Shown here: one piece after another, positions 21,172 to 46,092 of the stretch
How positions within the stretch are numbered: the first letter of the stretch is position 1
How the letters are laid out: each line of letters begins with the position of its first letter
Source: Emticicia oligotrophica DSM 17448
GTDB taxonomy: Bacteria > Bacteroidota > Bacteroidia > Cytophagales > Spirosomataceae
Direction of reading: 5' to 3'
DNA: 64,000 nt
NCBI RefSeq assembly: GCF_000263195.1
Contig: NC_018748.1
Span: forward strand, 3,162,001-3,226,000
Made by a program: the position numbers and the translations under genes
The notes under the pieces: generated by a model
What the model was told of the DNA's origin: nothing
What the model saw: only the letters and a program-made list of their open reading frames with translations
Database searches by the model: none

Positions 21172-22044
21172 ATGGTTCAAATAGAAAACAAACGATTTTC
21201 CTTTTCAGGACATGAGTCCTTTCAATGTCGTAGTTTATGGTTAAAAAAAGGATATGATTTTATAAATAGTGGCAAGTCTTTCAATGATGAGGATGCTGTT
21301 GTAATATTGGGTGTAGGAAAGAATATGGTAGCATCTATAAGATATTGGATGAAAGCTTTTGAATTGTTAGATTCAGATGATATTCTAACTGAATTAGCAC
21401 ATAAACTCTTATCTAATGATGGGTGGGACCCCTATTTGGAAGATGAAACAAGTCTGTGGATTTTACATCATCACTTAGTTACAAAGGGTTATGCCACGAT
21501 TTATGGATTAACGTTTAATGAATTAAGGAGAGAAAAAATTGAGTTCACGAAAGATAATTTTTTAGCATTTATCAAACGTAAGTCAGAAATATTAAGAATA
21601 AACACAAATGAAAAAACTGTTGGTGATGATTTTGATGTGATGATAAAATTATATTGTAGGCAAGATTCAAAAGATAAAGAAGATACGCTTTCAGGTCTTC
21701 TTTCTGAGCTTGAAATTATTAAAGCCCATAATAGAGAGAAAGATGTATATTTTATAATTGAAAACACAGAAAGACCCAATTTATCTGAATATGCAATACT
21801 TTACAGTATTTTGTGCGACCAATCATTTAATATGTCAGTTAGCTTAGCATATTTAGAACAAGAGCCCAACAGTGTATCAAGTATATTTGCTTTAAATCGT
21901 TCTGGATTAGTAAATAAAATTGAGGCATTGGTATCAAATGATGCTAATATTACTTACAGTGACCAAGCTGGTATCCGAGAATTACAATTTAAAGCTAAAC
22001 CAACACCTTTTGAAGTATTAGATAAGTATTATGCAGCAAAATAG
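21172..22044 (+). CDS. DUF4007 protein, SspB-like (DNA phosphorothioation)
   Basis: 290 aa. The N-terminal FSFSGHESFQCRSLWLKKG and the following GVGKNMVASIRYW are the hallmark of DUF4007, the domain of SspB, the nickase of single-strand phosphorothioation systems (SspABCD; recalled from the literature). It is the first gene of the plus-strand operon and overlaps the next gene by 14 bp. The very AT-rich codon use resembles its neighbours. In this context a role in choosing or nicking the strand for sulfur insertion is likely; this is inferred from homology and the adjacent DndC-like gene. Confidence 0.8.
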   Translation: MVQIENKRFSFSGHESFQCRSLWLKKGYDFINSGKSFNDEDAVVILGVGKNMVASIRYWMKAFELLDSDDILTELAHKLLSNDGWDPYLEDETSLWILHHHLVTKGYATIYGLTFNELRREKIEFTKDNFLAFIKRKSEILRINTNEKTVGDDFDVMIKLYCRQDSKDKEDTLSGLLSELEIIKAHNREKDVYFIIENTERPNLSEYAILYSILCDQSFNMSVSLAYLEQEPNSVSSIFALNRSGLVNKIEALVSNDANITYSDQAGIRELQFKAKPTPFEVLDKYYAAK

Positions 22045-25000
22045 TCAATATACAACATCAGTTAATATTATCCGTGATGAAAATAGGGATTTGATTTATC
22101 ATCCAACTCCTAACTCAACAAGAGTAGTAAATCAAATTGCCAATGATTTTAAGAAAGGACTACGTTCTTTCAATATTATTGGCACTTATGGCACAGGTAA
22201 ATCTTCATTTCTTTGGGCTTTTGGGCAAAGTCTAAGTGCTAAGAAAGTGTTTTTTAATATTAACTTGGTAACAAATCCTTCTCTTAAAATAATAAACTTT
22301 GTAGGTGAATATAAATCTATTACAGAATCATTTGCAGAATATTTCCATGTAGAAGAACATCAGAATAAACCACAGCATATACTATCTGAAATTTATAATC
22401 AATACCATGAATTAGGGGGAAAAAGCCCTTTATTAATAATTGTTATCGATGAGTTAGGTAAGTTTTTAGAATATGCTGCTCAGCATGAACCAGAGAAAGA
22501 ACTTTATTTCATTCAACAACTTACAGAGTTTGTAAATAATTCTGACTACAATATTTGTCTAATTACTACTGTTCATCAAAGTTTCGATGGTTATTCTTTT
22601 TCACTATCAAATACACAAAGGCAGGAATGGACAAAAGTAAAGGGTAGATTTAGAGAAATTACTTTCAATGAGCCAGTAGAGCAATTACTATTTTTGGCTG
22701 CTGAACATATAGACAATCAAACAAAAGAAGAAGGAGATAGTGATTCAATAAAGAGGGCATTAAAAATTACAAAAGACACCAAAGCATTTAGTTTAGATAA
22801 GGATTTTGCTATTCAAATAGCTAATAAGCTACATCCTTTAGATTTGTTAGCTGCTAATATACTTACTTTGTGTCTTCAAAAATATGGTCAAAATGAAAGG
22901 TCTCTTTTCTCATTTTTGGAGTCAACTGACCATACAAGTTTAGCCAAAGTAAAAATTACGTCAAAAAATCCATTCTACAATATTGCCAACGTTTATGATT
23001 ATCTGATATTTAATTTTTATTCTTTTATAAATACAAAGAATAATCCTGATTTTTTAGCTTGGACAAGTATTAGAAGTGCTTTAGAAAATGTTGAAAGGTC
23101 ATTCGATGATAACCTTGAAGAATATGACAAACTGATAAAAACTATTGGTTTATTATCTTTAATAAGTCCTAAAGGTTCTATTTTGGATGAAGACTTTTTA
23201 ATTAATTATTCAAAAACTTGTTTAGGGATTAAAAAACCTACAATCTTAATAGAAGCCTTAGACCAAAAAAAAATAATACTTTATCGTAATTATAGTAAAC
23301 GGTTTGTGCTATTTGAGGGTACAGACCTTGATATTCAATTAGCTCTTAATGAGGCAGGTAATAAAGTTAGTGAAATTAGTGATGTTGTGACTCTTTTAAA
23401 GAAATACTATCAACTACCACCCATTTTTGCTAAGATGTATTCTTATGAAACTGGCACACCCAGAATATTCGATTATGTTATTTCAGATAAACCTATTAGT
23501 AATGCTCCAATTGGAGAAATAGATGGATTTATTAATCTAATTTTTAATGAACAATTAACTGTATCACAGGTCAAACAAAAGTCTTTAGAACAAGAAGAAG
23601 CCATTATCTATGGTTTTTACCATAATGCAAAAAAAATAAAAGACCAGTTATTTGAAATTGAAAAAACCCAAAAGGTAATTGAAGAAAATAAAGATGATAA
23701 AGTAGCATGGAGAGAGTTACAAAATGTACTGATTCATCATAAAAATTTATTGAATCACTATATCATTGATGGGCATTATAATGGAGAAGTGACTTGGATT
23801 TTTAAAGGACAAGAAAAAAGGATACAAAATCAAAAAGAATTTAATAAGTTCATATCACAAGTTTGTTTAGCAGTTTATACGGACACACCATGTTTTAAGA
23901 ATGAGTTAGTCAATCGACATAAAATTTCAGCATCAATACATTCTGCAAAAAAGAACTATTTTAAAGCACTCGCAAATAATTGGGGAGAATTGGACTTAGG
24001 GTTTTCCAAGGACAAATTTCCACCTGAAAAAACTATCTATCTAACACTGTTAAAAAACAATGGCATTGATGTTTCTTCCAAGAAAGTAGATGACATAAAT
24101 ATAAAAACAGGAAATAATTTTATTCCACTTTGGAAAGCATCAATAGAATTTTTAGAAAGCTCGAAGACAGCAAAAAGAAAAATATCAGAATTAAGTACTA
24201 TTCTTAGCAAAAGACCTTTTAAACTTAAACAAGGATTAATTGATTTTTGGATACCAAGCTTTCTGTTTATTACAAGAAATGACTATGCTTTATTTGGAGA
24301 AGGAGGATATATACCTGTACTAAATGAAGAAGTATTGGAATTATTAACCAAATATCCTGAGAAATATGAGTTAAAGACATTTTCAGTAGAAGGAATAAAA
24401 CTTGACATATTTAATAGTTATAGACTCCTTTTGAACCAAACAACGGGGGAAACTATCTCAAATGATACTTTTATTGAAACAATAAAACCATTTTTAACCT
24501 TCTTTAAAAATTTACCTGAGTACTCAAAGAATACAAAAAGACTAAGTAAGGAAACTTTGGCGATTAGAAATGCAATTGCTAATTCAAAAGACCCAGAACA
24601 AACATTTTTTACTGATTTTCCAACAGCATTAGGCTTTAATTTGGGTAAACTACAGAGTTCAAAAGATGATTTGCAAGAATATACAATTAAACTTCAAGAT
24701 GCAATACGTGAACTAAGAACCTCTTTTGAGGAATTGGTTAATAGGATTGATTTATTTATTCAAGATGAAATTATTGGAGAAAGAGTTGAATTTGAAGTTT
24801 ATAAACCATTACTTCAAAAAAGGTATCAGAAATTAAAAAAGCATCTCTTATTAGCTGCACAAAAGACTTTTGTTCAAAGACTTGATTCACAATTAGATGA
24901 CCATAAAGCATGGTTAAGTTCTTTGACCCAAGCCCTTATAGGTACTACCTTAGAAAAATTAAAAGATAATGATGAACCATTAATTTATGAGAAATTCAAA

Positions 25001-25255
25001 TCTATGATTTTGGAGCTTGATAGCTTAACAAAAATATCAAAATCAGATTTCTCAGAAGAAAAAGAAGATGTAATAAGTTTGGAGATAAATTCATTTAACT
25101 CAGGTAGTAGTAAAAAATTGATTAGATTGCCTAAAAGTAAGCAAGCAGAAGTTAAACTAATTGAAGAATCTATACGTTTAACTTTATCGAAGGATAAAAC
25201 CATGAATATTGCAGCATTAACAAATCTACTTAATGAATTATTTAAAAATGAGTAA
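22031..25255 (+). CDS. Large P-loop ATPase, SspC-like
   Basis: 1074 aa. Walker A is IIGTYGTGKSSFLWAF (about residue 50) and Walker B is LLIIVIDELGKFLEY, followed by a sensor-like LITTVHQSF. The long remainder is helical with a coiled-coil near the C-terminus (DLQEYTIKLQDAIREL). It lies between the DUF4007 and the DndC-like genes, the position of SspC in sspBCD operons. It would power or regulate modification; the sequence shows ATP binding only. Confidence 0.75.
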   Translation: MQQNSQYTTSVNIIRDENRDLIYHPTPNSTRVVNQIANDFKKGLRSFNIIGTYGTGKSSFLWAFGQSLSAKKVFFNINLVTNPSLKIINFVGEYKSITESFAEYFHVEEHQNKPQHILSEIYNQYHELGGKSPLLIIVIDELGKFLEYAAQHEPEKELYFIQQLTEFVNNSDYNICLITTVHQSFDGYSFSLSNTQRQEWTKVKGRFREITFNEPVEQLLFLAAEHIDNQTKEEGDSDSIKRALKITKDTKAFSLDKDFAIQIANKLHPLDLLAANILTLCLQKYGQNERSLFSFLESTDHTSLAKVKITSKNPFYNIANVYDYLIFNFYSFINTKNNPDFLAWTSIRSALENVERSFDDNLEEYDKLIKTIGLLSLISPKGSILDEDFLINYSKTCLGIKKPTILIEALDQKKIILYRNYSKRFVLFEGTDLDIQLALNEAGNKVSEISDVVTLLKKYYQLPPIFAKMYSYETGTPRIFDYVISDKPISNAPIGEIDGFINLIFNEQLTVSQVKQKSLEQEEAIIYGFYHNAKKIKDQLFEIEKTQKVIEENKDDKVAWRELQNVLIHHKNLLNHYIIDGHYNGEVTWIFKGQEKRIQNQKEFNKFISQVCLAVYTDTPCFKNELVNRHKISASIHSAKKNYFKALANNWGELDLGFSKDKFPPEKTIYLTLLKNNGIDVSSKKVDDINIKTGNNFIPLWKASIEFLESSKTAKRKISELSTILSKRPFKLKQGLIDFWIPSFLFITRNDYALFGEGGYIPVLNEEVLELLTKYPEKYELKTFSVEGIKLDIFNSYRLLLNQTTGETISNDTFIETIKPFLTFFKNLPEYSKNTKRLSKETLAIRNAIANSKDPEQTFFTDFPTALGFNLGKLQSSKDDLQEYTIKLQDAIRELRTSFEELVNRIDLFIQDEIIGERVEFEVYKPLLQKRYQKLKKHLLLAAQKTFVQRLDSQLDDHKAWLSSLTQALIGTTLEKLKDNDEPLIYEKFKSMILELDSLTKISKSDFSEEKEDVISLEINSFNSGSSKKLIRLPKSKQAEVKLIEESIRLTLSKDKTMNIAALTNLLNELFKNE

Positions 25256-26351
25256 AGTAAGACATGTATTAGGTATATCAGGTGGTAAAGACAGTGCTGC
25301 ATTGGCGATATATATGAAAAATACATATCCTGACTTAGACATTGAATACTATACGTCTGATACTGGTAAAGAGCTTGATGAAACATACAAGCTCATTGAT
25401 AACTTAGAAGTTTACTTAGGTAAAAAAATAATTCGTTTAGCAGGAGCAGAAAACAGCCCAGAGCTACCATTTGACCATTTTCTTAAAATGTATGGGGGTT
25501 TTTTACCTTCTTCCAATTCAAGATGGTGTACAAAAAAACTAAAACTTGACCCATTTGAAAAATTTGTGGGCAATGACCCTGTAATTTCTTATGTTGGTAT
25601 TAGAGGAGATGAGGATAGAGAGGGTTATATCTCCAAGAAAAACAATATTCAGTCTATTTTCCCTTTCCGTCGTAATATTTGGAGTGAAGATGTAATTTCA
25701 AAAGTACTATCCAATAACAATATTAACAAAGTAATTGAGATATTCAATACTCTGGAAGAAAATGAGAAATCTATTCGCTTCAATGAAGTCTTACTAACTC
25801 CACTATCATTATCCTATGGTTTGCATCAAAAGCTAAATCAATTATTGGATTTGAGTGTTAAGGATTTTAATAAAATAGTTTTTACATTTATTCAATCAAC
25901 TGAATACCCATTAGCTAAAGAATCATCTTTCCCTTTAGTAGATAATGACGATGTACTAATTAGAAGTGATATTTTTAGAATATTAGAAACGAGTGGTGTT
26001 GGTGTACCTGAATATTATAAAGAAGTAGAGTTTGAAGTAAATGGAAAAAAAGGAACTTATGCGAGAAGTCGTTCAGGTTGCTTTTTTTGTTTTTACCAGC
26101 AAAAAATAGAGTGGGTTTGGTTATATGAACAACACCGTGAGCTTTTCTTAAAAGCAATGGAATATGAAAGAGATGGATACACTTGGATACAAGATGAACC
26201 TTTATCTGAACTAATAAAACCTGAGCGAATTCAAAGGATTAAAGAGGATTATATTAAAAGAACTCTTAAAAAAAATAAATCACAATCACATTACTTGCTT
26301 GATATTCTTGCTGATGCAGAAGGAGAAGGTTGTGCAAGTTGCTTTATTTAA
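25248..26351 (+). CDS. DndC/SspD-like ATP pyrophosphatase (PAPS reductase family)
   Basis: 367 aa. The PP-loop SGGKDSAALA adenylates the DNA backbone or the sulfur carrier in phosphorothioation. Cysteines in SRWCTKKL, GCFFCF and the C-terminal GCASCF could hold an Fe-S cluster as in DndC. The start at 25248 (MSKVRHVLG) overlaps the ATPase stop by 8 bp; an ATG 15 bp upstream is possible. The stop abuts the next start (TAAATG), so the operon is tightly coupled. Confidence 0.88.
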   Translation: MSKVRHVLGISGGKDSAALAIYMKNTYPDLDIEYYTSDTGKELDETYKLIDNLEVYLGKKIIRLAGAENSPELPFDHFLKMYGGFLPSSNSRWCTKKLKLDPFEKFVGNDPVISYVGIRGDEDREGYISKKNNIQSIFPFRRNIWSEDVISKVLSNNNINKVIEIFNTLEENEKSIRFNEVLLTPLSLSYGLHQKLNQLLDLSVKDFNKIVFTFIQSTEYPLAKESSFPLVDNDDVLIRSDIFRILETSGVGVPEYYKEVEFEVNGKKGTYARSRSGCFFCFYQQKIEWVWLYEQHRELFLKAMEYERDGYTWIQDEPLSELIKPERIQRIKEDYIKRTLKKNKSQSHYLLDILADAEGEGCASCFI

Positions 26352-27989
26352 ATGGAAGATATAATACTTTATTTATGCAATTTATCAGATAATCAAGAAT
26401 CTTTTAATAAATATCATGCTTTGCATATAAATATTGGAAGTTTCCAAATTTCTATATCATTAAATTTAGAAAAGTCATTTATTAATGCTCTTCCAACAAT
26501 CAATAATATAAACAATTTAATTGATTTTACAGCAGATACATCAGTCACTAAATTTAGAATTTCAATTAGTAACAATTTAGAAAAAAGCAATATAAATGAG
26601 ACATTGGACGAAGTCAATAGTGAACGTAATTTTGTAGAAAGACCAATATCTATTGCAAATACAATATTACAACTGGTAAAAGACTTATCCACTATTCATG
26701 ATAATTTAGTCAGTAGCTATAATTTTATAAGTGATAACTCAAATACTGATAAGCTAAAATATATTGGAGAAATTTCAATAAATGTACAAGTATTAGAATT
26801 AAAAACTGTCGAAAAAATTATTCATTCAATTAGAACAGCCAAGGTAGTAAATTTAGAATCTATTTATTGCAAATCATACTATAGATATGAGAAACCAAAA
26901 AATATTACTTCAGTTCAATTTCTAAATACTAATACTAAGGTTAGAAGATTGGGGTATCTTAAATTATTTTTTAGATTTATTAGAGATAGGAAAAAAATAC
27001 CTGAAGGATTTATAGACAAGAGATTTGAAGAGTACAGTTTGTTGTTTACTTCACAATTGAATGACTTAGTTAATAATAAGGGAATTATTCAAGACTTTAG
27101 AGGGAAATCGGCACAACCCTATATAACACTACTAAAAGAAATGGATTTGATTACAACCATAAATAGAGCTGTTGTACCAACAAAATGGTTAAAAACTTAC
27201 TTAACAATTCGTGATTTTTTTACTGATAATAGTCTTGAAGTATTTGTTTTAGATAAAATTGATAAACTATTCTTTTTGGAAGTTATACTAAAAAAAGACT
27301 TTTTATACACTTCAATAATCCTTGAATTTTTGTATGTTAGACCAGTTTCTTCATCAAAACAAATTATTGAACAATTTCAAAGTTTACTCATATCGAAAAT
27401 AAAAAAAATATCTAATCAAATAAATAATAAGAATAATAAATCAATTTCTCTACTTAAGGAAATTGAAAAAAGGGTAATTAGCTGGAAAAAGCCTGAAAAA
27501 TATCTTGAACACATTATAATACCAAGATTAAATTGGTTAGCAGACCTCGACTTAATAACATTAGATAATAATCTAATTAAAATAAATGATAATTGCATAG
27601 AACTTGTTAGTGAATTAAATTCATGGATTGATATTGAAAATGGATATGTATTAGATTCATCTGAATTTATTAGAAGTTTTTATCCACATATTTATTCAAA
27701 GTCCTGTAATGGTAATTATGGGGCTATCCCTAAAAAAGAACTAATAAATAGTTTAGTCGATGAATATATTGACCAAAGTTTTTCACTCTTTAAAACGCTT
27801 GCCCCAAATCGTGTAACATCATCTCAAGCATTTACTTTTACAAAATATTGTTTATATTTAAAAAATAATATTTCTATCAGTGAAAGTGCTTTATCCACAA
27901 TAATTGAAGAAAATTTTCCAAATAAATATATATATAAATATCAATCCAGTTATGGTGATGGATATATTCAAAAAATTCAACCCCAATAA
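26352..27989 (+). CDS. Unrecognised 545-aa protein in the phosphorothioation operon
   Basis: No known family recognised. The N-terminal about 200 residues alternate short strands (FQISISLNLEKS appears twice in variant form); the central and C-terminal parts are helical with winged-helix-like stretches (DKRFEEYSLLF, LLKEMDLIT, RNKW-like basic patches). There is no signal peptide. Its start directly follows the DndC-like stop and it is 5 bp before the AAA ATPase, so it almost surely works with the operon, perhaps as a scaffold or specificity subunit (inference). Confidence 0.7.
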   Translation: MEDIILYLCNLSDNQESFNKYHALHINIGSFQISISLNLEKSFINALPTINNINNLIDFTADTSVTKFRISISNNLEKSNINETLDEVNSERNFVERPISIANTILQLVKDLSTIHDNLVSSYNFISDNSNTDKLKYIGEISINVQVLELKTVEKIIHSIRTAKVVNLESIYCKSYYRYEKPKNITSVQFLNTNTKVRRLGYLKLFFRFIRDRKKIPEGFIDKRFEEYSLLFTSQLNDLVNNKGIIQDFRGKSAQPYITLLKEMDLITTINRAVVPTKWLKTYLTIRDFFTDNSLEVFVLDKIDKLFFLEVILKKDFLYTSIILEFLYVRPVSSSKQIIEQFQSLLISKIKKISNQINNKNNKSISLLKEIEKRVISWKKPEKYLEHIIIPRLNWLADLDLITLDNNLIKINDNCIELVSELNSWIDIENGYVLDSSEFIRSFYPHIYSKSCNGNYGAIPKKELINSLVDEYIDQSFSLFKTLAPNRVTSSQAFTFTKYCLYLKNNISISESALSTIIEENFPNKYIYKYQSSYGDGYIQKIQPQ

Positions 27990-27994
27990 ATTTT

Positions 27995-29134
27995 ATGCCT
28001 TATTCTGATTTATTTAATCTCAAATCAAATCCTTTTAGATTAATTCCAGCAATTAATCCTGATGAAATAATTTGGGCAGGATTTCCAATAGTTAAAGCAA
28101 AGTTTGAAGGTAGAATTAAAAAGGCAATTAAAATACCTAATTCATCTTTAGTTTTGAATTGGGGTGAGTATGGTAGTGGTAAAACACATGCTGCAAGGTA
28201 CTTCGGAAAACAGACTGTTTTAGAAGATTTAGCTCGAGATAATGGGAATATACCTTACTTTTTATTCATTACTTTGCCTAAAGGTAAATCACCAATTGAT
28301 GATTTTTTTATTTCCATAATTGATAAAATAGATATTTCTAACATTCGTGAAATATTTACTCCAAAATCAGATGAATTATTTTTAAAATCCAATAAGGAAC
28401 TGACGGATTTTATAGATACAATTGGAGATAACATTTTCATTAAAAATGTAGCAAAAGGCTTCTTCAATAAAGCTATTGACGTAAACTTATTTAGAAGATA
28501 TTTATATGGTTCTACAAATACTTCTGATAATAGAACTCTCACAGATTTTGGCATACAACGGGTTTTAAACCCTGATACCGACTATGCAAAACTACTTGCA
28601 ATAATTTTTTCTTGTTTAACTTTTAAGAAGTTGTTTTTTTCCTCAATTATACTCTGGATTGATGAATTTGAAGATATTGCAATTCTAACTAAAGTTAATG
28701 GTGATAAAACTAACTCATTTTTAAGAGAACTTTTAGACAATACCCCCAATAATTTATTGGTGTTTCTTAATCTTACACAAACATCCCTTTTTAACATTGA
28801 AGATTTAGGAGAATATATTAGTGAAGCTGTTAAATCAAGAATTAAAGATAGAATTAACTTTGAAATCCCTCAACAAGCAGAATTATTGGAGTATGTTGCT
28901 GAACTTTTAGAGGCATACCGTATTGAAAAGGATGTTGCAGGTGAAAATAAATATCATCCATTTAATGAGGGCTTAATTCAAACCATTGCTACTGACCTTG
29001 GAAATGTTTCTCTTAGAAAATTTAATGAAGCTCTTGGAATGCTAATTGAGTTAGCTGAAATGGAAAACAAAACACCTATTGATAATACCTTTTATCAAGA
29101 AAATAAAAGCGATGTAATTGGTTGGAAAGAATAA
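27995..29134 (+). CDS. AAA ATPase (ORC/ExeA-like) in the phosphorothioation operon
   Basis: 379 aa. It opens with LKSNPFRLIPA, a start typical of ExeA/ORC-type ATPases, then Walker A WGEYGSGKTHAARYF and Walker B IILWIDEFEDI, with an Asn/Thr sensor 1 (FLNLTQTS) and an Arg-rich SRIKDRINF. It binds ATP; the partner is probably the 545-aa protein and/or the PIN-like nuclease 3 bp downstream. Confidence 0.8.
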   Translation: MPYSDLFNLKSNPFRLIPAINPDEIIWAGFPIVKAKFEGRIKKAIKIPNSSLVLNWGEYGSGKTHAARYFGKQTVLEDLARDNGNIPYFLFITLPKGKSPIDDFFISIIDKIDISNIREIFTPKSDELFLKSNKELTDFIDTIGDNIFIKNVAKGFFNKAIDVNLFRRYLYGSTNTSDNRTLTDFGIQRVLNPDTDYAKLLAIIFSCLTFKKLFFSSIILWIDEFEDIAILTKVNGDKTNSFLRELLDNTPNNLLVFLNLTQTSLFNIEDLGEYISEAVKSRIKDRINFEIPQQAELLEYVAELLEAYRIEKDVAGENKYHPFNEGLIQTIATDLGNVSLRKFNEALGMLIELAEMENKTPIDNTFYQENKSDVIGWKE

Positions 29135-29137
29135 ATA

Positions 29138-29974
29138 ATGGAATATATTTTTGATGCTTGTACAGTTATAAATTTACTTCATATAGATGAGGATGAATTT
29201 TTATTAAAGAAAATTTCAAATCTTAATTTCAAAATATGTACAAAAGTTTTTGAAGAAATAAATAAAAACATTTTTGTAAAATTTAAAAATATACAACCTT
29301 ACCCTAAAGACAGAGTTGATTCAATTAGTTCTAAATTAATTTGTATTAGAGAAAAAATATATACTAAAGAAGATTATTTAGATTTGAATGACTCAGTTTT
29401 GGAGGTTTTAAAATACACAAAAAAAAATGGAGAGTACTATAGTATCCTCTTAGGATATTACTTAAATACTTTTGAGAAAGCACATATTCTTTTTTATACG
29501 GATGATTCACCTGCAAAGTTTTTTTTTACTCCCCATTTAAGTCAAAATCAAATAGGATATATTCAAGATAGTGTCGACTTACTTATTTTTCTATATCGGC
29601 AGAATCAAGATTTTACTTCTAATCATTTAAAGAAATATCTATCATCACTTTATTCTGAATATGCAACCGAATATACATTGTTAGAAAAAGAAATGAATAA
29701 TTTTGAAGTACCAAAAGGTCAAATTAAAAATAAAGATTTTAAATTAAAATTAGGACAAATTAAGTATGCGATTAATGAATTTAAACTTGAAGGTATTTAT
29801 GAATTATATAAAGATGTAATTAGTGATTCTAAAAAATATGGTATTTTACGCGATATTCTTTTAAAACACTCTTCTTTTTTTGAGAGTAGAATACACTCTG
29901 ATTATTTTAATAAAATCAAAACCAGTATTGCTCTTGTTGATTCAAAATCTTATTTTAAATACTTTCATAATTAA
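29138..29974 (+). CDS. PIN-like domain protein, candidate nuclease effector
   Basis: 278 aa. The N-terminal half shows the PIN acidic pattern: FDACTVINLL (Asp), KVFEEI (Glu), GEYYSILLGY (Glu) and FYTDDSPAKFF (Asp pair). PIN domains cut RNA or DNA with metal ions. The C-terminal about 130 residues are helical and unrecognised. It is the last gene of the plus-strand operon, ending 22 bp from the stop of the convergent operon. The nuclease role is inferred from motifs. Confidence 0.6.
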   Translation: MEYIFDACTVINLLHIDEDEFLLKKISNLNFKICTKVFEEINKNIFVKFKNIQPYPKDRVDSISSKLICIREKIYTKEDYLDLNDSVLEVLKYTKKNGEYYSILLGYYLNTFEKAHILFYTDDSPAKFFFTPHLSQNQIGYIQDSVDLLIFLYRQNQDFTSNHLKKYLSSLYSEYATEYTLLEKEMNNFEVPKGQIKNKDFKLKLGQIKYAINEFKLEGIYELYKDVISDSKKYGILRDILLKHSSFFESRIHSDYFNKIKTSIALVDSKSYFKYFHN

Positions 29975-29996
29975 ATTTGCATTTTAGAAATTATTT

Positions 29997-30491
29997 TTAA
30001 CCATCAAGCAAATCAATAAAACAGTTTTCATTCTGCAAAAAGAAAGCTGGATTTTCCTCTTTTTTAGACCTAATAATATCAAAACCACCATTTGCATAGT
30101 CTTCTAATAATCCACGTAATTCAGTAATCTTTTTCTCAACTTTTTCTTCTTCAAGATTTTCTAATTCATTGAAGTTAAAACCTGACTTTGCTAAAACCCC
30201 CATGATGATATAGTCTGTAATATCTTGAGGTTGCCATGCTCTCATTTCTATAAATTTGCTTGTTTCAGTTCCATAAGCAATAGGCACTTTATAGTCTTTC
30301 TTTAAACCTAATAATGCAGCATACATATACATCTCATAGCGAGTAGAGAAATATTTCCCCTGTTTCCATCTTGTTTCCTCGTTACTTGTACCAGCTTTCC
30401 CCCCCTGTTCAATAGTAAAATCTAATATCATTTGATAATACTGGTTATCATATTCTGGAGCTCTATCTTTTATTCTTTTTAGCAATTCCAT
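29997..30491 (-). CDS. Dnd-associated-like small protein (164 aa)
   Basis: The middle FSTRYEMYMYAALLGLKKDY and the later GLLEDYANGGFDII resemble what I remember of the 'dnd system-associated protein 4' family. It is last in the minus-strand operon, 1 bp after the SMC-like gene. No catalytic motif is evident; it may be an adaptor of the helicase/SMC restriction module. The family match is from memory and needs a profile search. Confidence 0.6.
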   Translation of the reverse strand: MELLKRIKDRAPEYDNQYYQMILDFTIEQGGKAGTSNEETRWKQGKYFSTRYEMYMYAALLGLKKDYKVPIAYGTETSKFIEMRAWQPQDITDYIIMGVLAKSGFNFNELENLEEEKVEKKITELRGLLEDYANGGFDIIRSKKEENPAFFLQNENCFIDLLDG

Positions 30492-30492
30492 A

Positions 30493-32682
30493 TTAATTCA
30501 ACTTTTCAATGTTAGTAGATAAACTATTTCTATTACTTCTCGTATTCTCTGTAATAGAAGGTGTAATCAAATAAACTTTACCAAGTTTAATCTCAGAATC
30601 AGTCAATAATTGTTCTCTAAGCTTAATGTTTTTATAAAACTCTTTACTCATGATTATACTTTGTCTATAAACCTTACTAACTGTCTTACAAAATCCTATT
30701 GTATAATCTTCTCCAAATACAGACATAGGAGCATCTGTAATCAATGTGTATAAATCCGTATCTCTTGAACCTTGTCGTGCAGATATAATAGCCATAATAG
30801 TTGCCAACTTTATAAGTATAATATTACCAGTATTCAGCTGTAACAACACATTACCATTTTCATCTACTAATTCAGGCATATAATTCTTTCCATTACTTAA
30901 TTCTCTTAGTCTAATAACTCCCCTTGAAGACATATTATCTTGAGTCATTTCTAAGTAATGTTTATTGGCTTCTTCTTCTAACACTTTAACTAATTTATTA
31001 AAAACTCGTTTTCTCGTAGAATGAGCCACCTGATAAAATTCATCTAAAACTCTTACTTTATCCAATAAATAAGCTGGAATCTCACCAACAACTAATTTAC
31101 TTAATTGAGCCTCAATAGTTAATAATTCTTCTTTTTTCCTTGATATAATATTAGAATTTGAAATAATTTCATTGCTTGAACGTCTCACTAATTCATTTTG
31201 AGCAGAATATTCGTTCAAAAGGTTATTTGCTTGGCTTACATTTAATGCTGCATCCACTATTAAACTGTTTTTTTCAGACTCAATTTTTAATAAATCTTCT
31301 GATAAAGCTTTCCTTTTTTTATCAAGCTTCCTCAATCTTCTAAAGGTAGAGGAAATATCATCATCAATATTTTTAATATTATGACTCAACCCAAGCCCAT
31401 TTTGGTATAGTTTTTTTAAATCTCCACTAAAATTATGTACACTTTTTTCTTCATCCTCTAAAGTTTTGATTTTCATTTTAGAACGGTCCATAAGCTCTTT
31501 CATTTTAAGCCAAGGGACTGAATCTTTTGGAGCTTCCCTGTCACAAACTAAGCATCTTTCTATGCCTAACATGTGTTCAAGATGGATTGGTTCTGGAACA
31601 TCAATAGGTAATCTTGCTTGTAACTCTATCAGTAAAGCATTTTCTGAGTCCAGTTTTGCTTTAATATTTGCTTCATTTTGTAACTTTACTTGCTCAAACG
31701 AACTATAAATTTTACTGTATTCTTCAAATAAATTTTCAGTTCCTTTCAAAACCCACTTATTAGTAAACATGCGTTTATGAAGGTTTTTCTGCTCTTCATG
31801 AAATTCATCTTGTACATCATTCAAGTTTTTCTCTATTGAGAGTCTTTTTGCTTCTATATCTTGTATGCTTTTGGCATCAGCAAATTTATTCAAAAGAAAT
31901 TCTGACTTCTCCTCTGCAATTGCTAAGTTATCCCTTATCTGTATATCTTGGAGTTCAAGAGCTTTTATCTGTCTAATTAACTCCTGCCTCTTCAACTCTA
32001 ACTGCTCACTTTCTCCCTTATTACTGCTTAAGTCACGTTGTTTTTTATTATATTCCTTAGATGATGATTCTTTTAAATTTTCTGCGATTGCAATTATATT
32101 ATCAAATCGAGTAATATTTGATAAAACATTAATTGCTTGGGTCAATGTATCGCTCTTATTAAAATCAATTATTGATTCAACTTGTTCTCCTTGAAACCAC
32201 ATATATGGTTTAATATTATCTGGTAATATATTATTCTTTATTCTTTTTATCTCATCTCTGTCTTTTATTTCTCTTGCATTTAAAAAGGATAACTCTTTAA
32301 ACCAAATTATTTCCTCACTGTCTTGGTCTTCCTTAATAGTTTCTCCAGACTTATTAATTGTATATCTCCTTTCTAAAATATACACACTATCTTTTTCTGT
32401 ATTATGAAAGGTAAGTATTACTGACGCTGTAATATTACCATCTTCTTGTTCTTTTATTGCTTTGTCTGAAACTATTAATCTTTTCAAAGAACTTGTTTCT
32501 GCAAACTTCTTTAAGGAGGTGTCAAAGCATCTATTGTACATTACCCAATAGAAAGCATCATATAGTTTAGATTTACCATAACCATTATCACCTATGATAA
32601 CATTTATACCTTCAGTAAAATCAAATCTGTTTGTGCCAGCATAACACATGAAGTTGTTTAGTTCTATGCTTTTTAGTATCAT
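30493..32682 (-). CDS. SMC/DndD-like ATPase with zinc-hook-like CxxC
   Basis: 729 aa. The N-terminal NFMCYAGTNRFDF and Walker A IGDNGYGKSKLYDAFYW, long coiled-coils around a hook-like RCLVCDRE, and a C-terminal ATPase lobe with LITDAPMSVFG mark a Rad50/SMC-type protein related to DndD. It overlaps the 72-aa gene by an ATGA. It likely tethers or remodels DNA for the helicase/nuclease of the same operon. Confidence 0.82.
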   Translation of the reverse strand: MILKSIELNNFMCYAGTNRFDFTEGINVIIGDNGYGKSKLYDAFYWVMYNRCFDTSLKKFAETSSLKRLIVSDKAIKEQEDGNITASVILTFHNTEKDSVYILERRYTINKSGETIKEDQDSEEIIWFKELSFLNAREIKDRDEIKRIKNNILPDNIKPYMWFQGEQVESIIDFNKSDTLTQAINVLSNITRFDNIIAIAENLKESSSKEYNKKQRDLSSNKGESEQLELKRQELIRQIKALELQDIQIRDNLAIAEEKSEFLLNKFADAKSIQDIEAKRLSIEKNLNDVQDEFHEEQKNLHKRMFTNKWVLKGTENLFEEYSKIYSSFEQVKLQNEANIKAKLDSENALLIELQARLPIDVPEPIHLEHMLGIERCLVCDREAPKDSVPWLKMKELMDRSKMKIKTLEDEEKSVHNFSGDLKKLYQNGLGLSHNIKNIDDDISSTFRRLRKLDKKRKALSEDLLKIESEKNSLIVDAALNVSQANNLLNEYSAQNELVRRSSNEIISNSNIISRKKEELLTIEAQLSKLVVGEIPAYLLDKVRVLDEFYQVAHSTRKRVFNKLVKVLEEEANKHYLEMTQDNMSSRGVIRLRELSNGKNYMPELVDENGNVLLQLNTGNIILIKLATIMAIISARQGSRDTDLYTLITDAPMSVFGEDYTIGFCKTVSKVYRQSIIMSKEFYKNIKLREQLLTDSEIKLGKVYLITPSITENTRSNRNSLSTNIEKLN

Positions 32683-32897
32683 GATTGCCTATTCATTAAT
32701 GTGTTTATCTTCTTCTCTGTTACATTTGAACTTTCCTTAGTCACTTCACCTTCAATAGCTATCTTAATTACATCAATCAAGTAATTCCCTGTGAGTGATG
32801 ACCATTTATATTTGTTAGCTTCTCCTTCTTTCAAATATTTTTTTTCTAAAAATAAATTATCCTCTAAGTAGGCTCTTAGTATATCTTCTTTAGTCAT
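32679..32897 (-). CDS. Small operon protein (72 aa)
   Basis: Soluble, charged, helix-rich (MTKEDILRAYLEDNLFLEKKYL). Real-gene status is supported by overlaps on both sides: its start overlaps the helicase stop by 8 bp and its stop overlaps the SMC start (ATGA). Function unknown; a small bridging subunit between helicase and SMC is plausible. Confidence 0.7.
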   Translation of the reverse strand: MTKEDILRAYLEDNLFLEKKYLKEGEANKYKWSSLTGNYLIDVIKIAIEGEVTKESSNVTEKKINTLMNRQS

Positions 32898-35133
32898 TGT
32901 TTTTCAATTTATTGTGAATTGTATAAATATTCAAATCATAATGTTTACAAATCTCTGAAAATACATTTTCTGTTTCAAAAGGATTAATAGCCAAGGATGC
33001 AAAATACATTACCCTTTCTAACTCTTTTTCAACTAAACTTCTTTCCACTCTAAATGTATCAGAATCAGCATTTGAAGATGTTAAATCAGGTATTACTATA
33101 AGGTCGTGTATAACAGCAATATCTTTTTGTGGATGAGTACGTAAAATCCTTCCTCTCCTTTGAATAAATTGCCTTGGATTTCCAGTGCTTGAGCAAAAAA
33201 TTGCATGTTCAGCTCTTGGAATATCAACACCTTCATCTAAACATTTCATTGATGCAATAACATGAATTTTGCCATCTCTAAATTGGTCTAAAACTTCATT
33301 TCTGTTTACCATTCCACTTACAAATTGGTTCACTTTAATTGAATCATCAATTTTACCAATCTCCCTTGTATATTGATTTATAATTTTTATTGTCTCTTCA
33401 TCACTATTTTCATCCTCAGTTAATTCTTGAGTATTACCTTCTGGAACATACACAAAAGTATAGTTGAGATTACCTTCTTTCTCAAAACGAGTTTCTAAAA
33501 TCTCTCTTGTTTTTGGTAATTTATTTACTGCTTTATGAATTATTCTCTTTCTTTTCAAAAGCAATTTTTCAACAATATCATTTTCACCAAAGCTATCTGA
33601 TTTATTGTTGTAAAATTTTGCAAGTTTTTTTGTTATTTCAATATATTCGATTAATTCTGCTTCGACAAGAGTTACAATATGTGGATAATAGTAGTATTTA
33701 CAAAGTATTCCTTCTTCTATTGCCCGTTCCATTGAGAATGAATAGGTATATGGTTCTTTATCATCAAAGAAACCTTCCATAGCCGCACTGCCCTCAATAT
33801 CATAAATTCTCTTAGGAGTAGCCGACAATCCAATACGTTTTTGAAGAGTTAATTTTGATAAACTATTAAGTACACTTTTGGAACCAATATTATGGGCTTC
33901 ATCTGCTATAAATAATGTATCATCAGGTAAAGCCTTAACATATCTCTGAAACCTTTCTTTTATAAAGGAAGCATAAGTGGTAATAATTACAAATGGGGTT
34001 GGTATTCTTTTAACAGTTGAAAGGGTTGTAGCTAAATTACTTTCCCAATCAACTTTGGAAGAGACTTTTATAATTTCTAAAAAGTTAAATTTTTTAGCTT
34101 CTTCTTCCCACTGATTTACTAAGGTAATGGTAGGAACTAAAATCAAACAATGGTAGATATTACTGTTCTTTTTATTTATTTCCTGCAAAAGGCAGTTTAA
34201 AGATGTAATAGTTTTTCCTGTACCTGTTGCCATAGCAAAGATACCTTTATAGCTATTATTCTGCCAATTATTGTAGGCTTGGGCTTGATAATCCCTTGGG
34301 CTTCCTCCATTTGGGAACTTTGGTTGTTGTTCTATTTCTTCAAATTTTTCAATCTTTTTATATGCAATTTTTAAAGTTTTATTTAGTTTTTCATTTACTG
34401 GTAGTTTTGTTTTCTTTTCTAAAAGATATTTTTCTTCTGCCAATAATTCGTTAATAGATTTTTCACCAAACTCACTTTTAATAGCAACTAAAATATTATC
34501 CACTTTTAAATATTCTACAAAATCTGCATGTCCTTCAAAAATTTCATTAAAATACCTACTTTGAGCATTAATCCATTTATTTGACCTACCATTTTCCCAA
34601 GACATGAAACTATCTAACTCTTCAAGATTTTCTAACAAACCATAAGCTGTAAAGTTACAAGAAGCTTTAAATCCAACTTTATTTTCACTATCACCAAAAA
34701 TACCAGATTTGTAATGAGATATGCCTTTGCCAATCTTAGGTTGAATAATTTGTATCCTAATTCTTTCTTTGGCAATCAACCATGCTAAACATTCAAAGAA
34801 ATGTTTTCCATATTCATCTAAAGTATTTTTAAGACTTTTTATATCATCCAACTTTATACTTGAATAATTTACCTTCCCCTCATAACCATTCTTGATAGCC
34901 TCTTTGTCTTGTGGAGATAGTATGTTATTGATTACCATTCTCATGATACCTCCTGAATAAAGGAAATTAGCAAATCCGAGAGACAAAACATTAATTGCAG
35001 TAGAACTAAAATAGCCTAATAACAAATCAAACGATTTACTATTGCACAACGCATCTATATAAAACTGGAGAGGTTCATTATCACTTCCAGTTTTATAATC
35101 CCTATCCTCTGACCAATCAACAGATTTTAACAT
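32890..35133 (-). CDS. PLD-nuclease/DEAD-box helicase fusion, restriction-type
   Basis: 747 aa. The N-terminal about 200 residues form a phospholipase-D-like domain (LLGYFSSTAIN, HYKSGIFGD with the HxK signature, SCNFTAYGLLEN). A spacer leads to an SF2 helicase: MATGTGKTITSL (motif I), IADEAHNIGS (motif II), GLSATP (III) and QRRGRILRTHP (VI). Such PLD-helicases accompany DNA phosphorothioation and other restriction systems. It begins 12 bp after the cysteine desulfurase stop. Cleavage of unmodified DNA is the likely role (inferred). Confidence 0.85.
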   Translation of the reverse strand: MLKSVDWSEDRDYKTGSDNEPLQFYIDALCNSKSFDLLLGYFSSTAINVLSLGFANFLYSGGIMRMVINNILSPQDKEAIKNGYEGKVNYSSIKLDDIKSLKNTLDEYGKHFFECLAWLIAKERIRIQIIQPKIGKGISHYKSGIFGDSENKVGFKASCNFTAYGLLENLEELDSFMSWENGRSNKWINAQSRYFNEIFEGHADFVEYLKVDNILVAIKSEFGEKSINELLAEEKYLLEKKTKLPVNEKLNKTLKIAYKKIEKFEEIEQQPKFPNGGSPRDYQAQAYNNWQNNSYKGIFAMATGTGKTITSLNCLLQEINKKNSNIYHCLILVPTITLVNQWEEEAKKFNFLEIIKVSSKVDWESNLATTLSTVKRIPTPFVIITTYASFIKERFQRYVKALPDDTLFIADEAHNIGSKSVLNSLSKLTLQKRIGLSATPKRIYDIEGSAAMEGFFDDKEPYTYSFSMERAIEEGILCKYYYYPHIVTLVEAELIEYIEITKKLAKFYNNKSDSFGENDIVEKLLLKRKRIIHKAVNKLPKTREILETRFEKEGNLNYTFVYVPEGNTQELTEDENSDEETIKIINQYTREIGKIDDSIKVNQFVSGMVNRNEVLDQFRDGKIHVIASMKCLDEGVDIPRAEHAIFCSSTGNPRQFIQRRGRILRTHPQKDIAVIHDLIVIPDLTSSNADSDTFRVERSLVEKELERVMYFASLAINPFETENVFSEICKHYDLNIYTIHNKLKNND

Positions 35134-35144
35134 CTTATCTAAAA

Positions 35145-36275
35145 TTACCTTTTTAAGTATGTAGTAATAATATTAATCAGCTCATTTACTTCTTCGATAG
35201 TATTCTTTTTACTAAGAGATAATCTCAAGCTTCCTAGAGCTTGCTCCTCAGATAATCCCATTTCAATTAATACATGTGATGGTTGTACTAAAGCGGCAGT
35301 ACAAGCTGAACCATTACTAACTGCAATATTTTTATATTTGTCTATAAAAAAGTTTGCATCAAATGAAGGGAAACAAATATTTAGAGTATTGTAAATTCTA
35401 TTACTCTTATTTCCATTAGAATATGTTCCTTTGATTTGTAAAAGCCTATCTTCTAATTCATTTTGTAAGTATTTAACATACTCAGAATTAACTTTCATTT
35501 CCTCTAATGCAATTTCACAGGCTTTACCTATTCCAATAATTGCAGGAACATTACTTGTGCCACTTCTTAGCCCATATTCATGTCCTCCTCCATGAAGCTG
35601 AGTATCAACTTTAATACCTCTTTTTATAAAAAGTCCCCCAATACCCTTTGGTCCATAAAACTTATGAGCTGAAAAACTTAGCAAATCAATATCCAATTCA
35701 TATACATCAATAGGAATTTTGCCCACTGCCTGTGTTGCATCTGTAAAAAAGATTGAATCATTTTCGTGTGTGAGCTCAATAATATCTTCAATTGGTTGAA
35801 TAACCCCAGTTTCATTATTTACCCACATTATAGACACAATAATTGTATCTTTCCTAAGAGCATTTTTAAACTCTTCTATATCAATTATTCCATCATTTTT
35901 TACAGAGATATATGTTACCTCAAAACCAATTTGCTCAAGATATTTACAAGTATCTAAAACTGCTTTATGTTCAGTTTTACAAGTTATGATATGTTTACCT
36001 TTACTTTGGTAAGCGATTGCACAGCCTTTTAATCCAAGGTTTATGCTCTCAGTAGCACCAGATGTGAAAATAATTTCTTTAGGTTCAGCATTTAATAAAG
36101 AAGAAATTTGTTCACGAGCCTTTTGAACTGCATTATTTATACGTTTCCCAAAATGATGACTACTTGAGGAATTACCAAAATCATTTTTGAAATAAGGCAA
36201 CATTGATTCAAGCACTCTCTCATCTAATGGTGTAGTAGCATTGTTATCAAAATATATTAATTCAGAGGTATTCAA
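35145..36275 (-). CDS. Cysteine desulfurase (DndA/SspA/IscS-like)
   Basis: 376 aa PLP enzyme. The cofactor Lys205 is in SAHKFYGPKG and the sulfur-carrying Cys325 in NGSACTAAL; other PLP contacts are GATESIN and TDATQAVGK. It supplies the persulfide sulfur for DNA phosphorothioation, being located with SspB/SspC/SspD-like genes, although it heads the opposite operon (helicase, 72 aa, SMC, 164 aa follow). A housekeeping role in Fe-S assembly is possible but its location inside the island argues for system-specific use. Confidence 0.9.
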   Translation of the reverse strand: MNTSELIYFDNNATTPLDERVLESMLPYFKNDFGNSSSSHHFGKRINNAVQKAREQISSLLNAEPKEIIFTSGATESINLGLKGCAIAYQSKGKHIITCKTEHKAVLDTCKYLEQIGFEVTYISVKNDGIIDIEEFKNALRKDTIIVSIMWVNNETGVIQPIEDIIELTHENDSIFFTDATQAVGKIPIDVYELDIDLLSFSAHKFYGPKGIGGLFIKRGIKVDTQLHGGGHEYGLRSGTSNVPAIIGIGKACEIALEEMKVNSEYVKYLQNELEDRLLQIKGTYSNGNKSNRIYNTLNICFPSFDANFFIDKYKNIAVSNGSACTAALVQPSHVLIEMGLSEEQALGSLRLSLSKKNTIEEVNELINIITTYLKR

Positions 36276-36541: not shown

Positions 36542-36892
36542 TTAGAAAGGTGGCTCGTCGCCTTCTGTAGGAGTTGTGTTGGTTGGTTGCTCTTTGACAG
36601 GTTCAGCAGTTGCCTTTTTCAATAGTCTGAGGTCATGCAGTTTGAGGTTGTTGAACCATCTACCAGTTCCCTCAAATTTTCTCGCTCCTAAATAGCAGCC
36701 AATTTCAACCTCATTACCTACTGCAAGGTTTGGATTTTTGATTTTGTCATTCCATACCTCTACAACTACATTGGTGGGAAACTTGCCCTCCATACTAAGC
36801 AAAAACTCCATTTTGCTACTTTTCTCCCCTGATTTGTAATCAATTGACCTTTCAGGGAATAGGTCAGTGATTTTTCCTGTTAATGTTACCAT
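36542..36892 (-). CDS. DUF3127 OB-fold protein with SSB-like tail
   Basis: 116 aa. The N-terminal domain (MVTLTGKITDLFP, MEFLLSMEGKFPTNVVVEVW) matches DUF3127, an OB-fold family of Bacteroidota. The C-terminus is a disordered linker ending GDEPPF, very like the acidic Pro-Phe tip with which SSB recruits replication proteins. It follows the DUF3987 gene on the same strand (77-bp gap). Probably the single-strand DNA-binding protein of the element. Confidence 0.75.
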   Translation of the reverse strand: MVTLTGKITDLFPERSIDYKSGEKSSKMEFLLSMEGKFPTNVVVEVWNDKIKNPNLAVGNEVEIGCYLGARKFEGTGRWFNNLKLHDLRLLKKATAEPVKEQPTNTTPTEGDEPPF

Positions 36893-45462: not shown

Positions 45463-46092
45463 TCTAAATTATAATTATTTATGTAAATAATTGTAATAAA
45501 CAACCTCTATCTTACGAATAGGCATGGATTTATTTGTATTTTTAATCTTTAATACGAGCCGATTTATTTTTTAATTGGATTTACTTTGGGGTAAAAAACT
45601 TCAGAATTGAATAAATTTTTTAGACTTTGAAAATACTTATGACAAGAATTTAGTAAAAGTATAATTGTACAATACAATATTTTAGGTTAATAAAAAATAA
45701 CAGTTAAAGTAGAGAAACATAATCAAAATTACATCAAAAAAAGGCTATAATTTTATTTGACTAATAATTTTCGATTTTATGCTGTCTGTAAATTAAATAG
45801 CAATAATGAAAGTATTTCATGCCATTTTCTAAAAATATGTAAGATGACAAAAATACAATGACCCTACAAATATGGTTGGTGACGCTGAATAATGAATTTA
45901 AATAGCAATTTATATTTAAAACCTCAATATTTGTTAGATATTGGTAAAAGGAAATGGTACTTTTATTTCAGTGTTTCTTCTTAAGTTTAGTAATCTACCT
46001 TTGCTTATTAATAGTCATTTACAAAAAATTATATTTCATTGACATTATTTATTGAAATTTTGAATCTTAATGTCTATATTTTACTTAATGCT
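45463..46092. other. Intergenic stretch upstream of the TPR kinase
   Basis: About 630 AT-rich bases. I see no credible reading frame and no pair of 20-bp-spaced repeats; the kinase promoter should lie near its 3' end. Confidence 0.5.

What the first reader, a model, noticed from the sequence alone, without database searches (positions are those of the whole stretch)
21172..36275. Phosphorothioation-type defence locus with hybrid Ssp/Dnd gene content
The sequence shows DUF4007, a large ATPase, a DndC-like PP-loop enzyme and a cysteine desulfurase, the parts known as SspB, SspC, SspD and SspA. But the usual SspE (DUF262/HNH) is absent. Instead there are two extra blocks: 545 aa-AAA-PIN behind sspBCD, and PLD-helicase-72 aa-SMC-164 aa behind the desulfurase. 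SspFGH is a known alternative partner; which block, if either, corresponds to it I cannot tell. Having both blocks in one island would be unusual.
Basis: partly seen in the sequence, partly recalled or inferred. Interest (0 to 1): 0.85.

Follow-up and report, generated by a model that had tools for sequence, protein, structure and literature searches.

The report
DNA-sulfur defence island with swappable nuclease
A bacterial DNA-sulfur marking system here sits with two different attack modules, a known one (Pbe) and an unrecognised DNA-reader/motor/PIN-nuclease set, and the same combination recurs in other bacteria, so it looks like one composite anti-virus system with an exchangeable weapon slot.

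Summary
The island is real. Genes 21172-26351 and 35145-36275 are SspB, SspC, SspD and SspA by profile. Neither extra block is SspFGH. The block behind the desulfurase is PbeABCD: PLD-helicase PbeA, small PbeB, CxxC ABC-ATPase PbeC, DndE-like PbeD. The block behind sspBCD is an unnamed trio: P545 (model with three winged helices, weak FokI/BspD6I-type match), a BrxD-like AAA+ ATPase, and a PIN-fold protein with conserved acidic residues. PADLOC's SspF/G/H models find true SspFGH but not the trio.

A scan of 84,980 species genomes gave 27 further trio loci, by title mostly Bacteroidota. sspD is upstream in 23 of the 24 with enough contig; pbeA lies nearby in 17 of 27. Of 20 other strong SspD loci sampled in the phylum, 6 have pbeA and 0 the trio. 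A same-genus relative keeps the SspBCD/Pbe/SspA frame with a different gene set in the trio's place. So the combination is conserved, with an exchangeable slot. Activity and mechanism are untested. New variant of phosphorothioation-based defence.

The parts
21172..22044 (+). sspB (DUF4007)
   Evidence: Pfam PF13182 1e-77, PADLOC SspB 3e-106
22031..25255 (+). sspC (large ATPase, BrxC relative)
   Evidence: PADLOC SspC E=0, 1496 bits, against BrxC 4.6e-63; Walker A GTYGTGKS
25233..26351 (+). sspD (PP-loop sulfurtransferase; likely true start about 25248)
   Evidence: PADLOC SspD 5.3e-93; PAPS_reduct 3.6e-5; SGGKDS in 43 of 44 sequences, window included
26352..27989 (+). P545: predicted DNA reader, variable beta-rich N-terminus and three winged-helix units
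   Evidence: AlphaFold2 pLDDT 85.9, pTM 0.89; Foldseek best two hits Nt.BspD6I, E 0.012 and 0.016, prob 0.98 and 0.99, but TM about 0.25; aligned with 23 relatives
27995..29134 (+). AAA+ ATPase, BrxD-like
   Evidence: Walker A GEYGSGKT, Walker B WIDEFED; PADLOC BrxD matched by 25 of 26 members at E<=0.1, best 4.6e-6, window itself 0.019
29138..29974 (+). PIN-fold predicted nuclease with C-terminal helical extension
   Evidence: D6, E40, G98, E99, D123, D147 invariant in 28; AlphaFold2 pLDDT 90.5; Foldseek best hit PAE2754, prob 1.00, TMt 0.70, E 0.025
29997..30491 (-). pbeD (DndE-like, DNA phosphorothioation-associated protein 4)
   Evidence: NCBIfam TIGR04062 1.9e-7, below cut-off; place in the pbe run; no PADLOC match even at E<=10
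30493..32682 (-). pbeC (CxxC ABC-ATPase)
   Evidence: PADLOC PbeC 3.6e-26, best non-PbeC model LmuB 1.7e-20; CLVC at residue 377, mid-protein CxxC in all 19 full-length PbeC examined
32679..32897 (-). pbeB (72-aa small protein)
   Evidence: no profile match; a 70-81-aa ORF lies in this gap in 19 of 19 Bacteroidota-type pbeA-pbeC gaps, the L033 order not counted
32890..35133 (-). pbeA (PLD/HKD domain fused to SF2 helicase)
   Evidence: PADLOC PbeA E=0, 1094 bits; TIGR04095 1.1e-127, below cut-off; HYK at 140, GTGKT, DEAH
35145..36275 (-). sspA (cysteine desulfurase)
   Evidence: PADLOC SspA 1.6e-160, DndA 3.7e-159; GSAC motif
36542..36892 (-). DUF3127 protein, flanking the island
   Evidence: Pfam 1.4e-15
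36970..39177 (-). BT4734-like/DUF3987 primase-type protein, mobile-element context
   Evidence: Pfam 4.3e-32 and 1.2e-57
39842..41080 (-). tyrosine recombinase (integrase)
   Evidence: Pfam Phage_integrase 8.9e-17

Best explanation
This is a composite phosphorothioation (PT) based anti-phage system. SspABCD puts sulfur into the DNA backbone at specific sites (inferred from family). Two separate readers then act on phage DNA. First, PbeABCD: the CxxC ABC-ATPase PbeC with DndE-like PbeD scans DNA and directs the helicase-nuclease PbeA (inferred from PMC6459918 and PMC10853773). Second, a previously unnamed trio: P545 binds DNA through FokI/BspD6I-type winged helices and judges its PT state, the BrxD-like AAA+ ATPase assembles or remodels on that complex, and the PIN nuclease is switched on. 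I think the PIN protein most likely cuts RNA as a back-up or growth-arrest step, and somewhat less likely cuts DNA. The trio occupies an exchangeable slot behind sspD, in the window between the SspBCD run and the Pbe run. Shown here: gene identities, conservation of the combination, predicted folds, conserved acidic and Walker residues, a different gene set in the slot of a same-genus relative. Inferred: sulfur in the DNA, PT sensing, order of events, target of PIN.
For: Profile identities. 27 trio loci in other genomes; PIN follows the ATPase in 27 of 27; sspD upstream in 23 of the 24 loci with at least 4.7 kb of upstream contig; pbeA in 17 of 27, in three layouts: five co-directional with sspA, seven co-directional without sspA found, five convergent as in the window. 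6 of 20 other strong SspD loci from the phylum sample also carry pbeA, four of them with pbeC by HMM, as does the Rhizobium indigoferae plasmid L033. Slot exchange: same-genus L101 has SspBCD, then a GHKL-ATPase protein plus two genes, then convergent PbeD-C-A and SspA. Within-module pairwise identities correlate: SspA-D 0.83-0.95, trio 0.88-0.91, PbeC-PbeD 0.97; between SspB/C/D and the trio 0.60-0.69. Folds.
Against: No activity data. Neither Foldseek search gave a hit at E<=0.001; the P545 match has TM about 0.25 and rmsd about 16 over the long alignment, so the three-winged-helix reading rests largely on the model's own secondary structure. Pfam recognises a PIN domain in only 1 of 28 members, weakly (0.015-0.016). 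P545 and SspB, which should share the fold, show no clear profile relation (hhalign P 0.027 over 27 columns). PbeA correlates with SspB/C/D (0.84-0.87) as well as with PbeC (0.82), so module borders are not sharp; the correlations are not corrected for shared ancestry. 10 of 27 trio loci show no pbeA, so Pbe is not required (L009 has only about 1 kb of downstream contig; the other nine have 6 kb or more downstream). L026 has PIN and Pbe but a truncated ATPase and no SspBCD found.
Confidence: 0.55

Rival explanations
1. Block 1 is a far-diverged SspFGH: reader, ATPase and nuclease doing the same job with unrecognisable sequence.
For: Same position behind sspBCD and three genes with an ATPase; SspF has a Walker A motif (PMC8092258, parts 1-3 of 5 read).
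Against: No PADLOC SspF/G/H match at E<=1 while these models find true SspFGH; hhalign P-values 0.3-0.61 for four comparisons with L031 proteins and 0.039-0.96 for the nine trio/SspF/G/H pairs; sizes 545/379/278 aa against 591/489/over 1500 aa; the ATPase is the second gene here, the first in sspFGH.
Confidence: 0.1
2. The trio is a separate defence system that merely shares an island with Ssp and Pbe.
For: Defence islands collect unrelated systems; trio identities correlate only moderately with SspB/C/D (0.60-0.69); 10 of 27 trio loci show no pbeA.
Against: sspD lies upstream in 23 of 24 testable loci; in the window sspD-P545-AAA-PIN are 0, 5 and 3 bp apart.
Confidence: 0.2
3. The PIN protein is a DNA nuclease and the trio is a direct restriction complex like DndFGH, not an RNA-cutting back-up.
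For: P545 looks like a DNA reader and the ATPase resembles BrxD, an ORC-Cdc6 ATPase (PMC12839542, passages), so the complex may sit on DNA; the flap-endonuclease branch of the PIN fold cuts DNA (recalled).
Against: Closest solved folds are small PIN proteins (PAE2754; a VapC4 entry at rank 12); PIN proteins near Dnd and BREX loci are classed as endoRNases in PMC10853773 and PMC12839542 (passages seen).
Confidence: 0.3
4. PbeABCD here works without PT, as a passenger.
For: PMC6459918 (passages seen) reports that 320 of 553 pbeAC lack dndCD nearby.
Against: Pbe beside Ssp in 17 of 27 trio loci, 6 of 20 other SspD loci, L101 and L033.
Confidence: 0.15

Closest known systems
SspABCD-SspFGH (Vibrio anguillarum FF-93; PMC8092258, parts 1-3 of 5 read)
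   Same: SspBCD followed by a three-gene partner that includes an ATPase
   Different: No sequence or profile relation to SspF/G/H found; no FtsK-like protein; nuclease is PIN-type; PbeABCD also present
SspABCD-SspE (as described in PMC8092258; L032 used as example)
   Same: SspABCD modification genes
   Different: No DUF262 SspE at the locus (the only DUF262 match in the genome is on another contig)
DndCDEA-PbeABCD (Haloterrigena jeotgali A29; PMC6459918, passages seen)
   Same: PbeABCD with all four parts
   Different: Modification by SspABCD, not DndCDEA; extra trio
CxC ABC-ATPase/DndE systems (PMC10853773, section 16 and passages read)
   Same: PbeC mid-protein CxxC, DndE-like PbeD, HKD-helicase PbeA, small PbeB
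   Different: Section 16 describes partners DndDE or cytosine methylases; Ssp is not named there as a partner
BREX type 2 BrxD and type 4 BREX (PMC12839542, abstract and passages seen)
   Same: SspB/C/D homologous to type 4 parts; trio ATPase resembles BrxD
   Different: No PglZ, BrxL, BrxHI or PglW match among the proteins scanned, apart from helicase-level similarity of PbeA; a sulfur-type, not methyl-type, modification gene

Membership tests
SspABCD modification | DUF4007 SspB, large ATPase SspC, PP-loop SspD and desulfurase SspA together | tested here: met
SspABCD modification | PT in DNA (5'-C(PS)CA-3' in known cases) | not testable with these tools
   needs mass spectrometry or iodine cleavage
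PbeABCD | PbeA: HKD/PLD domain fused to SF2 helicase | tested here: met
   PADLOC PbeA E=0; HxK pattern in 23 of 24, Walker A in 24 of 24, DEAH/DECH in 18 of 24; my pattern for the second half of the HKD motif matched 0 of 24 because it was too narrow (window reads KASCNFT there)
PbeABCD | PbeC: coiled-coil ABC-ATPase with mid-protein CxC/CxxC | tested here: met
   PADLOC PbeC 3.6e-26; CxxC at 0.49-0.52 of length in all 19 full-length copies, also in the partial L028
PbeABCD | PbeD: DndE-like protein | tested here: inconclusive
   TIGR04062 1.9e-7, 31 bits against a cut-off of 74; no PADLOC match, but also none for the PbeD of L033, which its record names phosphorothioation-associated protein 4; place in the operon fits
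PbeABCD | PbeB: small protein between A and C | tested here: met
   by size and place only
SspFGH | SspF, SspG, SspH sequence families | tested here: not met
SspE | DUF262/HNH effector at the locus | tested here: not met
DndABCDE | DndD/DndE modification pair and DndC over its cut-off | tested here: not met
   DndC profile 18 bits against cut-off 290; SspC, not DndD, beside sspD; the DndD-like protein present scores best as PbeC
BREX type 4 | PglZ and BrxL beside SspB/C/D-like genes | tested here: not met
   none among the proteins scanned in and beside the island; not every ORF of the window was scanned
PIN nuclease | PIN fold with conserved acidic residues | tested here: met
   (Foldseek prob 1.00 but E 0.025)
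PIN nuclease | nuclease activity | not testable with these tools
   biochemistry needed

The most novel reading that the evidence does not exclude
The trio P545-BrxD-like-PIN is a new type of PT-reading effector, and Ssp loci are built as a fixed SspABCD (often plus PbeABCD) frame with a slot behind sspD that takes many weapons (trio, GHKL-ATPase set, helicase/ATPase/PLD set, deoxyribosyltransferase-like, DndB-like, DUF262). This would explain many of the 2,211 of 2,678 sspBCD clusters reported without sspE or sspFGH (PMC8092258).
Probability: 0.55. Interest if true: 0.75.

Novelty: new variant of a known kind. Interest (0 to 1): 0.6.

Why it matters
PMC8092258 reports that most sspBCD clusters (2,211 of 2,678) have neither sspE nor sspFGH nearby and suggests that further restriction partners may exist. 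The trio, and Pbe beside Ssp, are two concrete and testable candidates. Pbe linked to Ssp rather than Dnd would also test whether Pbe reads the sulfur mark in general or one specific Dnd motif.

Tried and rejected
SspFGH for either block: rejected. Dnd modification locus: rejected (DndC far below cut-off). BREX type 4: rejected for lack of PglZ and BrxL among the proteins scanned. Naming P545 and PIN by Pfam, NCBIfam, PADLOC or PDB sequence: nothing usable (HTH_45 in 3 of 24 P545 members, best 0.0071, and Sso10a E 0.084 are weak support for winged helices). The AAA profile against PDB sequences gave only TAF1 chains over profile positions 76-131 (best E 0.0031), which I take as chance; the single AAA sequence gave nothing convincing. 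P545 in viral contigs: none. AAA in plasmids: none at 1e-5. P545 and AAA in phylum samples: only the window's own genome, 1 of 395 each; AAA in the genus 1 of 11. Promoter and terminator scans: no more than in shuffles. Literature: searches and the passages and sections named found no description of Ssp paired with Pbe or of this trio; Burroughs and Aravind 2020 (JB.00365-20) is not held, and supplements were not looked at, so absence in print is not shown.
Full report
What is there. The island 21172-36275 holds eleven intact genes in two convergent runs. On the plus strand sspB, sspC and sspD are followed with gaps of 0, 5 and 3 bp by three further genes, here called P545, AAA and PIN. On the minus strand sspA is followed by four genes with gaps or overlaps of 1-11 bp. 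Between the ends of the two runs lie 22 bp. In 2-kb steps G+C is 26-31% over 20-36 kb; it is 32.5-37% before 18 kb and 34-39.5% beyond 50 kb; low G+C continues to 50 kb except for 32-34% at 36-40 kb. A tyrosine recombinase (39842-41080) and a BT4734-like/DUF3987 protein (36970-39177) lie beside it, so a mobile element is likely (inference).

Modification genes. DUF4007 matches at 1e-77. PADLOC names SspB (3e-106), SspC (E=0, against BrxC 4.6e-63), SspD (5.3e-93) and SspA (1.6e-160, with DndA close at 3.7e-159). NCBIfam puts DndC at 18 bits against a cut-off of 290. So this is Ssp, not Dnd.

Block 2 is PbeABCD. The 747-aa protein matches PbeA at E=0 and the 729-aa protein PbeC at 3.6e-26. The 164-aa protein matches TIGR04062 (DNA phosphorothioation-associated protein 4) at 1.9e-7, well below the curated cut-off, and no PADLOC model. 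The 72-aa protein matches nothing, but a 70-81-aa ORF sits in the same gap in 19 of 19 pbeA-pbeC gaps of this layout; L033 has another gene order and is not counted. All 19 full-length PbeC proteins examined carry a CxxC at the middle of the chain, as expected for the CxC ABC-ATPase class of PMC10853773 (section 16 read). PMC6459918 (passages seen) describes PbeABCD with DndCDEA in haloarchaea: pbeB, C and D are needed and pbeA partly, activity needs PT, and viral DNA stays intact; PMC10853773 disputes the non-cleavage reading.

Block 1 is unnamed. No SspF, SspG or SspH match at E<=1, while a true SspFGH from Sinorhizobium terangae scores 1.7e-198, 1.2e-192 and 0. Profile comparisons of the trio with SspF/G/H give P-values of 0.039 or worse. 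AAA has Walker A and B motifs; 25 of 26 family members match BrxD, best 4.6e-6, the window's own only 0.019. PIN has D6, E40, G98, E99, D123 and D147 invariant in 28 sequences; its model (pLDDT 90.5) has PAE2754 (a PIN protein, recalled) as best structural match (prob 1.00, E 0.025). The P545 model (pLDDT 85.9, pTM 0.89) shows a beta-rich N-terminus, less conserved than the rest, and from about residue 200 three helix groups each closed by a two-stranded wing; Foldseek's best hits are six chains of the nicking enzyme Nt.BspD6I (E 0.012-0.13, prob 0.75-0.99, TM only 0.20-0.25). PMC10853773 and PMC12839542 (passages seen) describe a FokI-type HTH array in DndG, SspB and BrxA, so a DNA-reading role is a reasonable inference; a profile comparison of P545 with SspB itself shows no clear relation (P 0.027 over 27 columns).

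Recurrence. One scan of 84,980 species genomes with the AAA protein gave 27 loci, a lower bound because single-protein patterns find close relatives only. By their titles all but a Thiomargarita (L024) and 'Bacterium UASB270' (L027) are Bacteroidota. tblastn of the eleven window proteins: PIN follows AAA in 27 of 27; sspD is upstream in 23 of the 24 loci with at least 4.7 kb of upstream contig, the exception being L026, where AAA is truncated; L016, L024 and L028 begin too near AAA to tell. pbeA is present in 17 of 27: convergent in five (L002, L003, L006, L016, L026), co-directional with sspA in five (L010, L012-L015), co-directional without sspA found in seven (L011, L017-L021, L028). There is none in ten (L004, L005, L007-L009, L022-L025, L027); L009 has only about 1 kb downstream of PIN. 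In L004 a complete GmrSD protein (DUF262 plus HNH-type C-terminal domain, the SspE kind) follows PIN directly, and L023 has a DUF262 protein upstream, so the second partner also varies.

Census. The SspD profile in 395 genomes of the phylum gave 85 with any match; 20 loci besides the window have E below 1e-45 and were fetched. All have SspB and SspC matches. By HMM: pbeA in 6 (L074, L075, L078, L079, L081, L082; pbeC too in the last four), a helicase/ATPase/PLD set in 6 (PLD weak, 1e-7 to 2e-8, in three), SspFGH in 1, none of these sets in 7 (L073 has the ATPase alone); SspE-like in L086, which also has the PLD set; the trio in 0. The SspE model was one sequence and missed at least the DUF262 protein of L080, so the 7 are not proven orphans. 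The trio is rare (1 of 395); Pbe beside Ssp is not.

Slot. In the same genus, L101 keeps SspBCD, PbeD-C-A and SspA in the window's convergent layout but has a 777-aa GHKL-ATPase protein with 397- and 288-aa partners where the window has the trio. L081 has a similar GHKL protein in that place; in L074 and L075 one lies on the far side of pbeA instead. Other Ssp-Pbe loci carry a deoxyribosyltransferase-like protein (L078), a DndB-like protein (L082) or an RNase T-type exonuclease (L079) behind sspD. L102, 85% identical in SspC, has a transposase-like ORF (HTH_29, rve) running off the contig behind sspD, so its slot cannot be read.

Module structure. Correlations of pairwise identities: SspA-D 0.83-0.95; P545/AAA/PIN 0.88-0.91; PbeC-PbeD 0.97; SspB/C/D against the trio 0.60-0.69; PbeA 0.75-0.87 with all. 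They are not corrected for ancestry and use different numbers of loci, so I use them as description only. In 15 loci PbeC falls to 18-25% identity with the window while PbeA stays at 46-56%.

Mechanism. Shown: identities, conserved order, predicted folds, conserved active-site residues, a different content of the slot in relatives. Inferred: SspABCD marks DNA with sulfur; Pbe and the trio read DNA separately; P545 reads, AAA powers, PIN cuts. I favour RNA cutting as a back-up step because the nearest solved folds are small PIN proteins and the slot also takes other effector types, but DNA cutting is nearly as likely.

Novelty. Pbe and Ssp are known. The trio as a partner, and Pbe with Ssp, were not described in the papers, sections and passages I saw; most subscription papers are not held. 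I rate it a new variant of a known kind.

Noticed in passing
L029, L035, L036 (plasmids), L067, L069, L076, L084-L086: A helicase / ATPase / PLD-family three-gene set next to SspBCD, in 6 of 20 sampled Ssp loci of the phylum and in Pannonibacter, Trichormus and Hymenobacter plasmids; only partial or weak PADLOC matches for the L035 set. Possibly a commoner unnamed Ssp partner than the trio.
   Followed up: partly
L101:6866-11296, L081:7394-9643, L074:1623-3992, L075:2612-4990: GHKL-ATPase proteins of 750-793 aa in Ssp-Pbe loci (Pfam); in the slot in L101 and L081, beyond pbeA in L074 and L075.
   Followed up: partly
L004:11959-14271: A complete GmrSD (DUF262 plus C-terminal nuclease domain) protein directly behind the trio, where other loci have Pbe.
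   Followed up: partly
L008:11040-17838: A 1763-aa protein with a HerA/DUF87 domain and a 502-aa neighbour behind the trio, perhaps a DndFGH- or SspFGH-like set.
   Followed up: no
L033 (Rhizobium indigoferae plasmid): SspABCD directly beside Pbe genes in an alphaproteobacterium, in the order A-D-C and a small ORF.
   Followed up: partly
L026:10001-16578: Decayed-looking locus: PIN and PbeABCD kept, AAA truncated, SspBCD not found in the 10 kb upstream.
   Followed up: partly
L006, L010-L018, L020, L078-L082: PbeC and PbeD differ from the window far more than PbeA does, as if the recognition pair is swapped or diversifying.
   Followed up: partly
L082:10831-12081, L078:9180-9584: DndB-like protein and a nucleoside deoxyribosyltransferase-like protein behind SspD in Ssp-Pbe loci.
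   Followed up: no
window 41566-42906 and 46039-48021: Two histidine-kinase-type proteins beyond the integrase.
   Followed up: no
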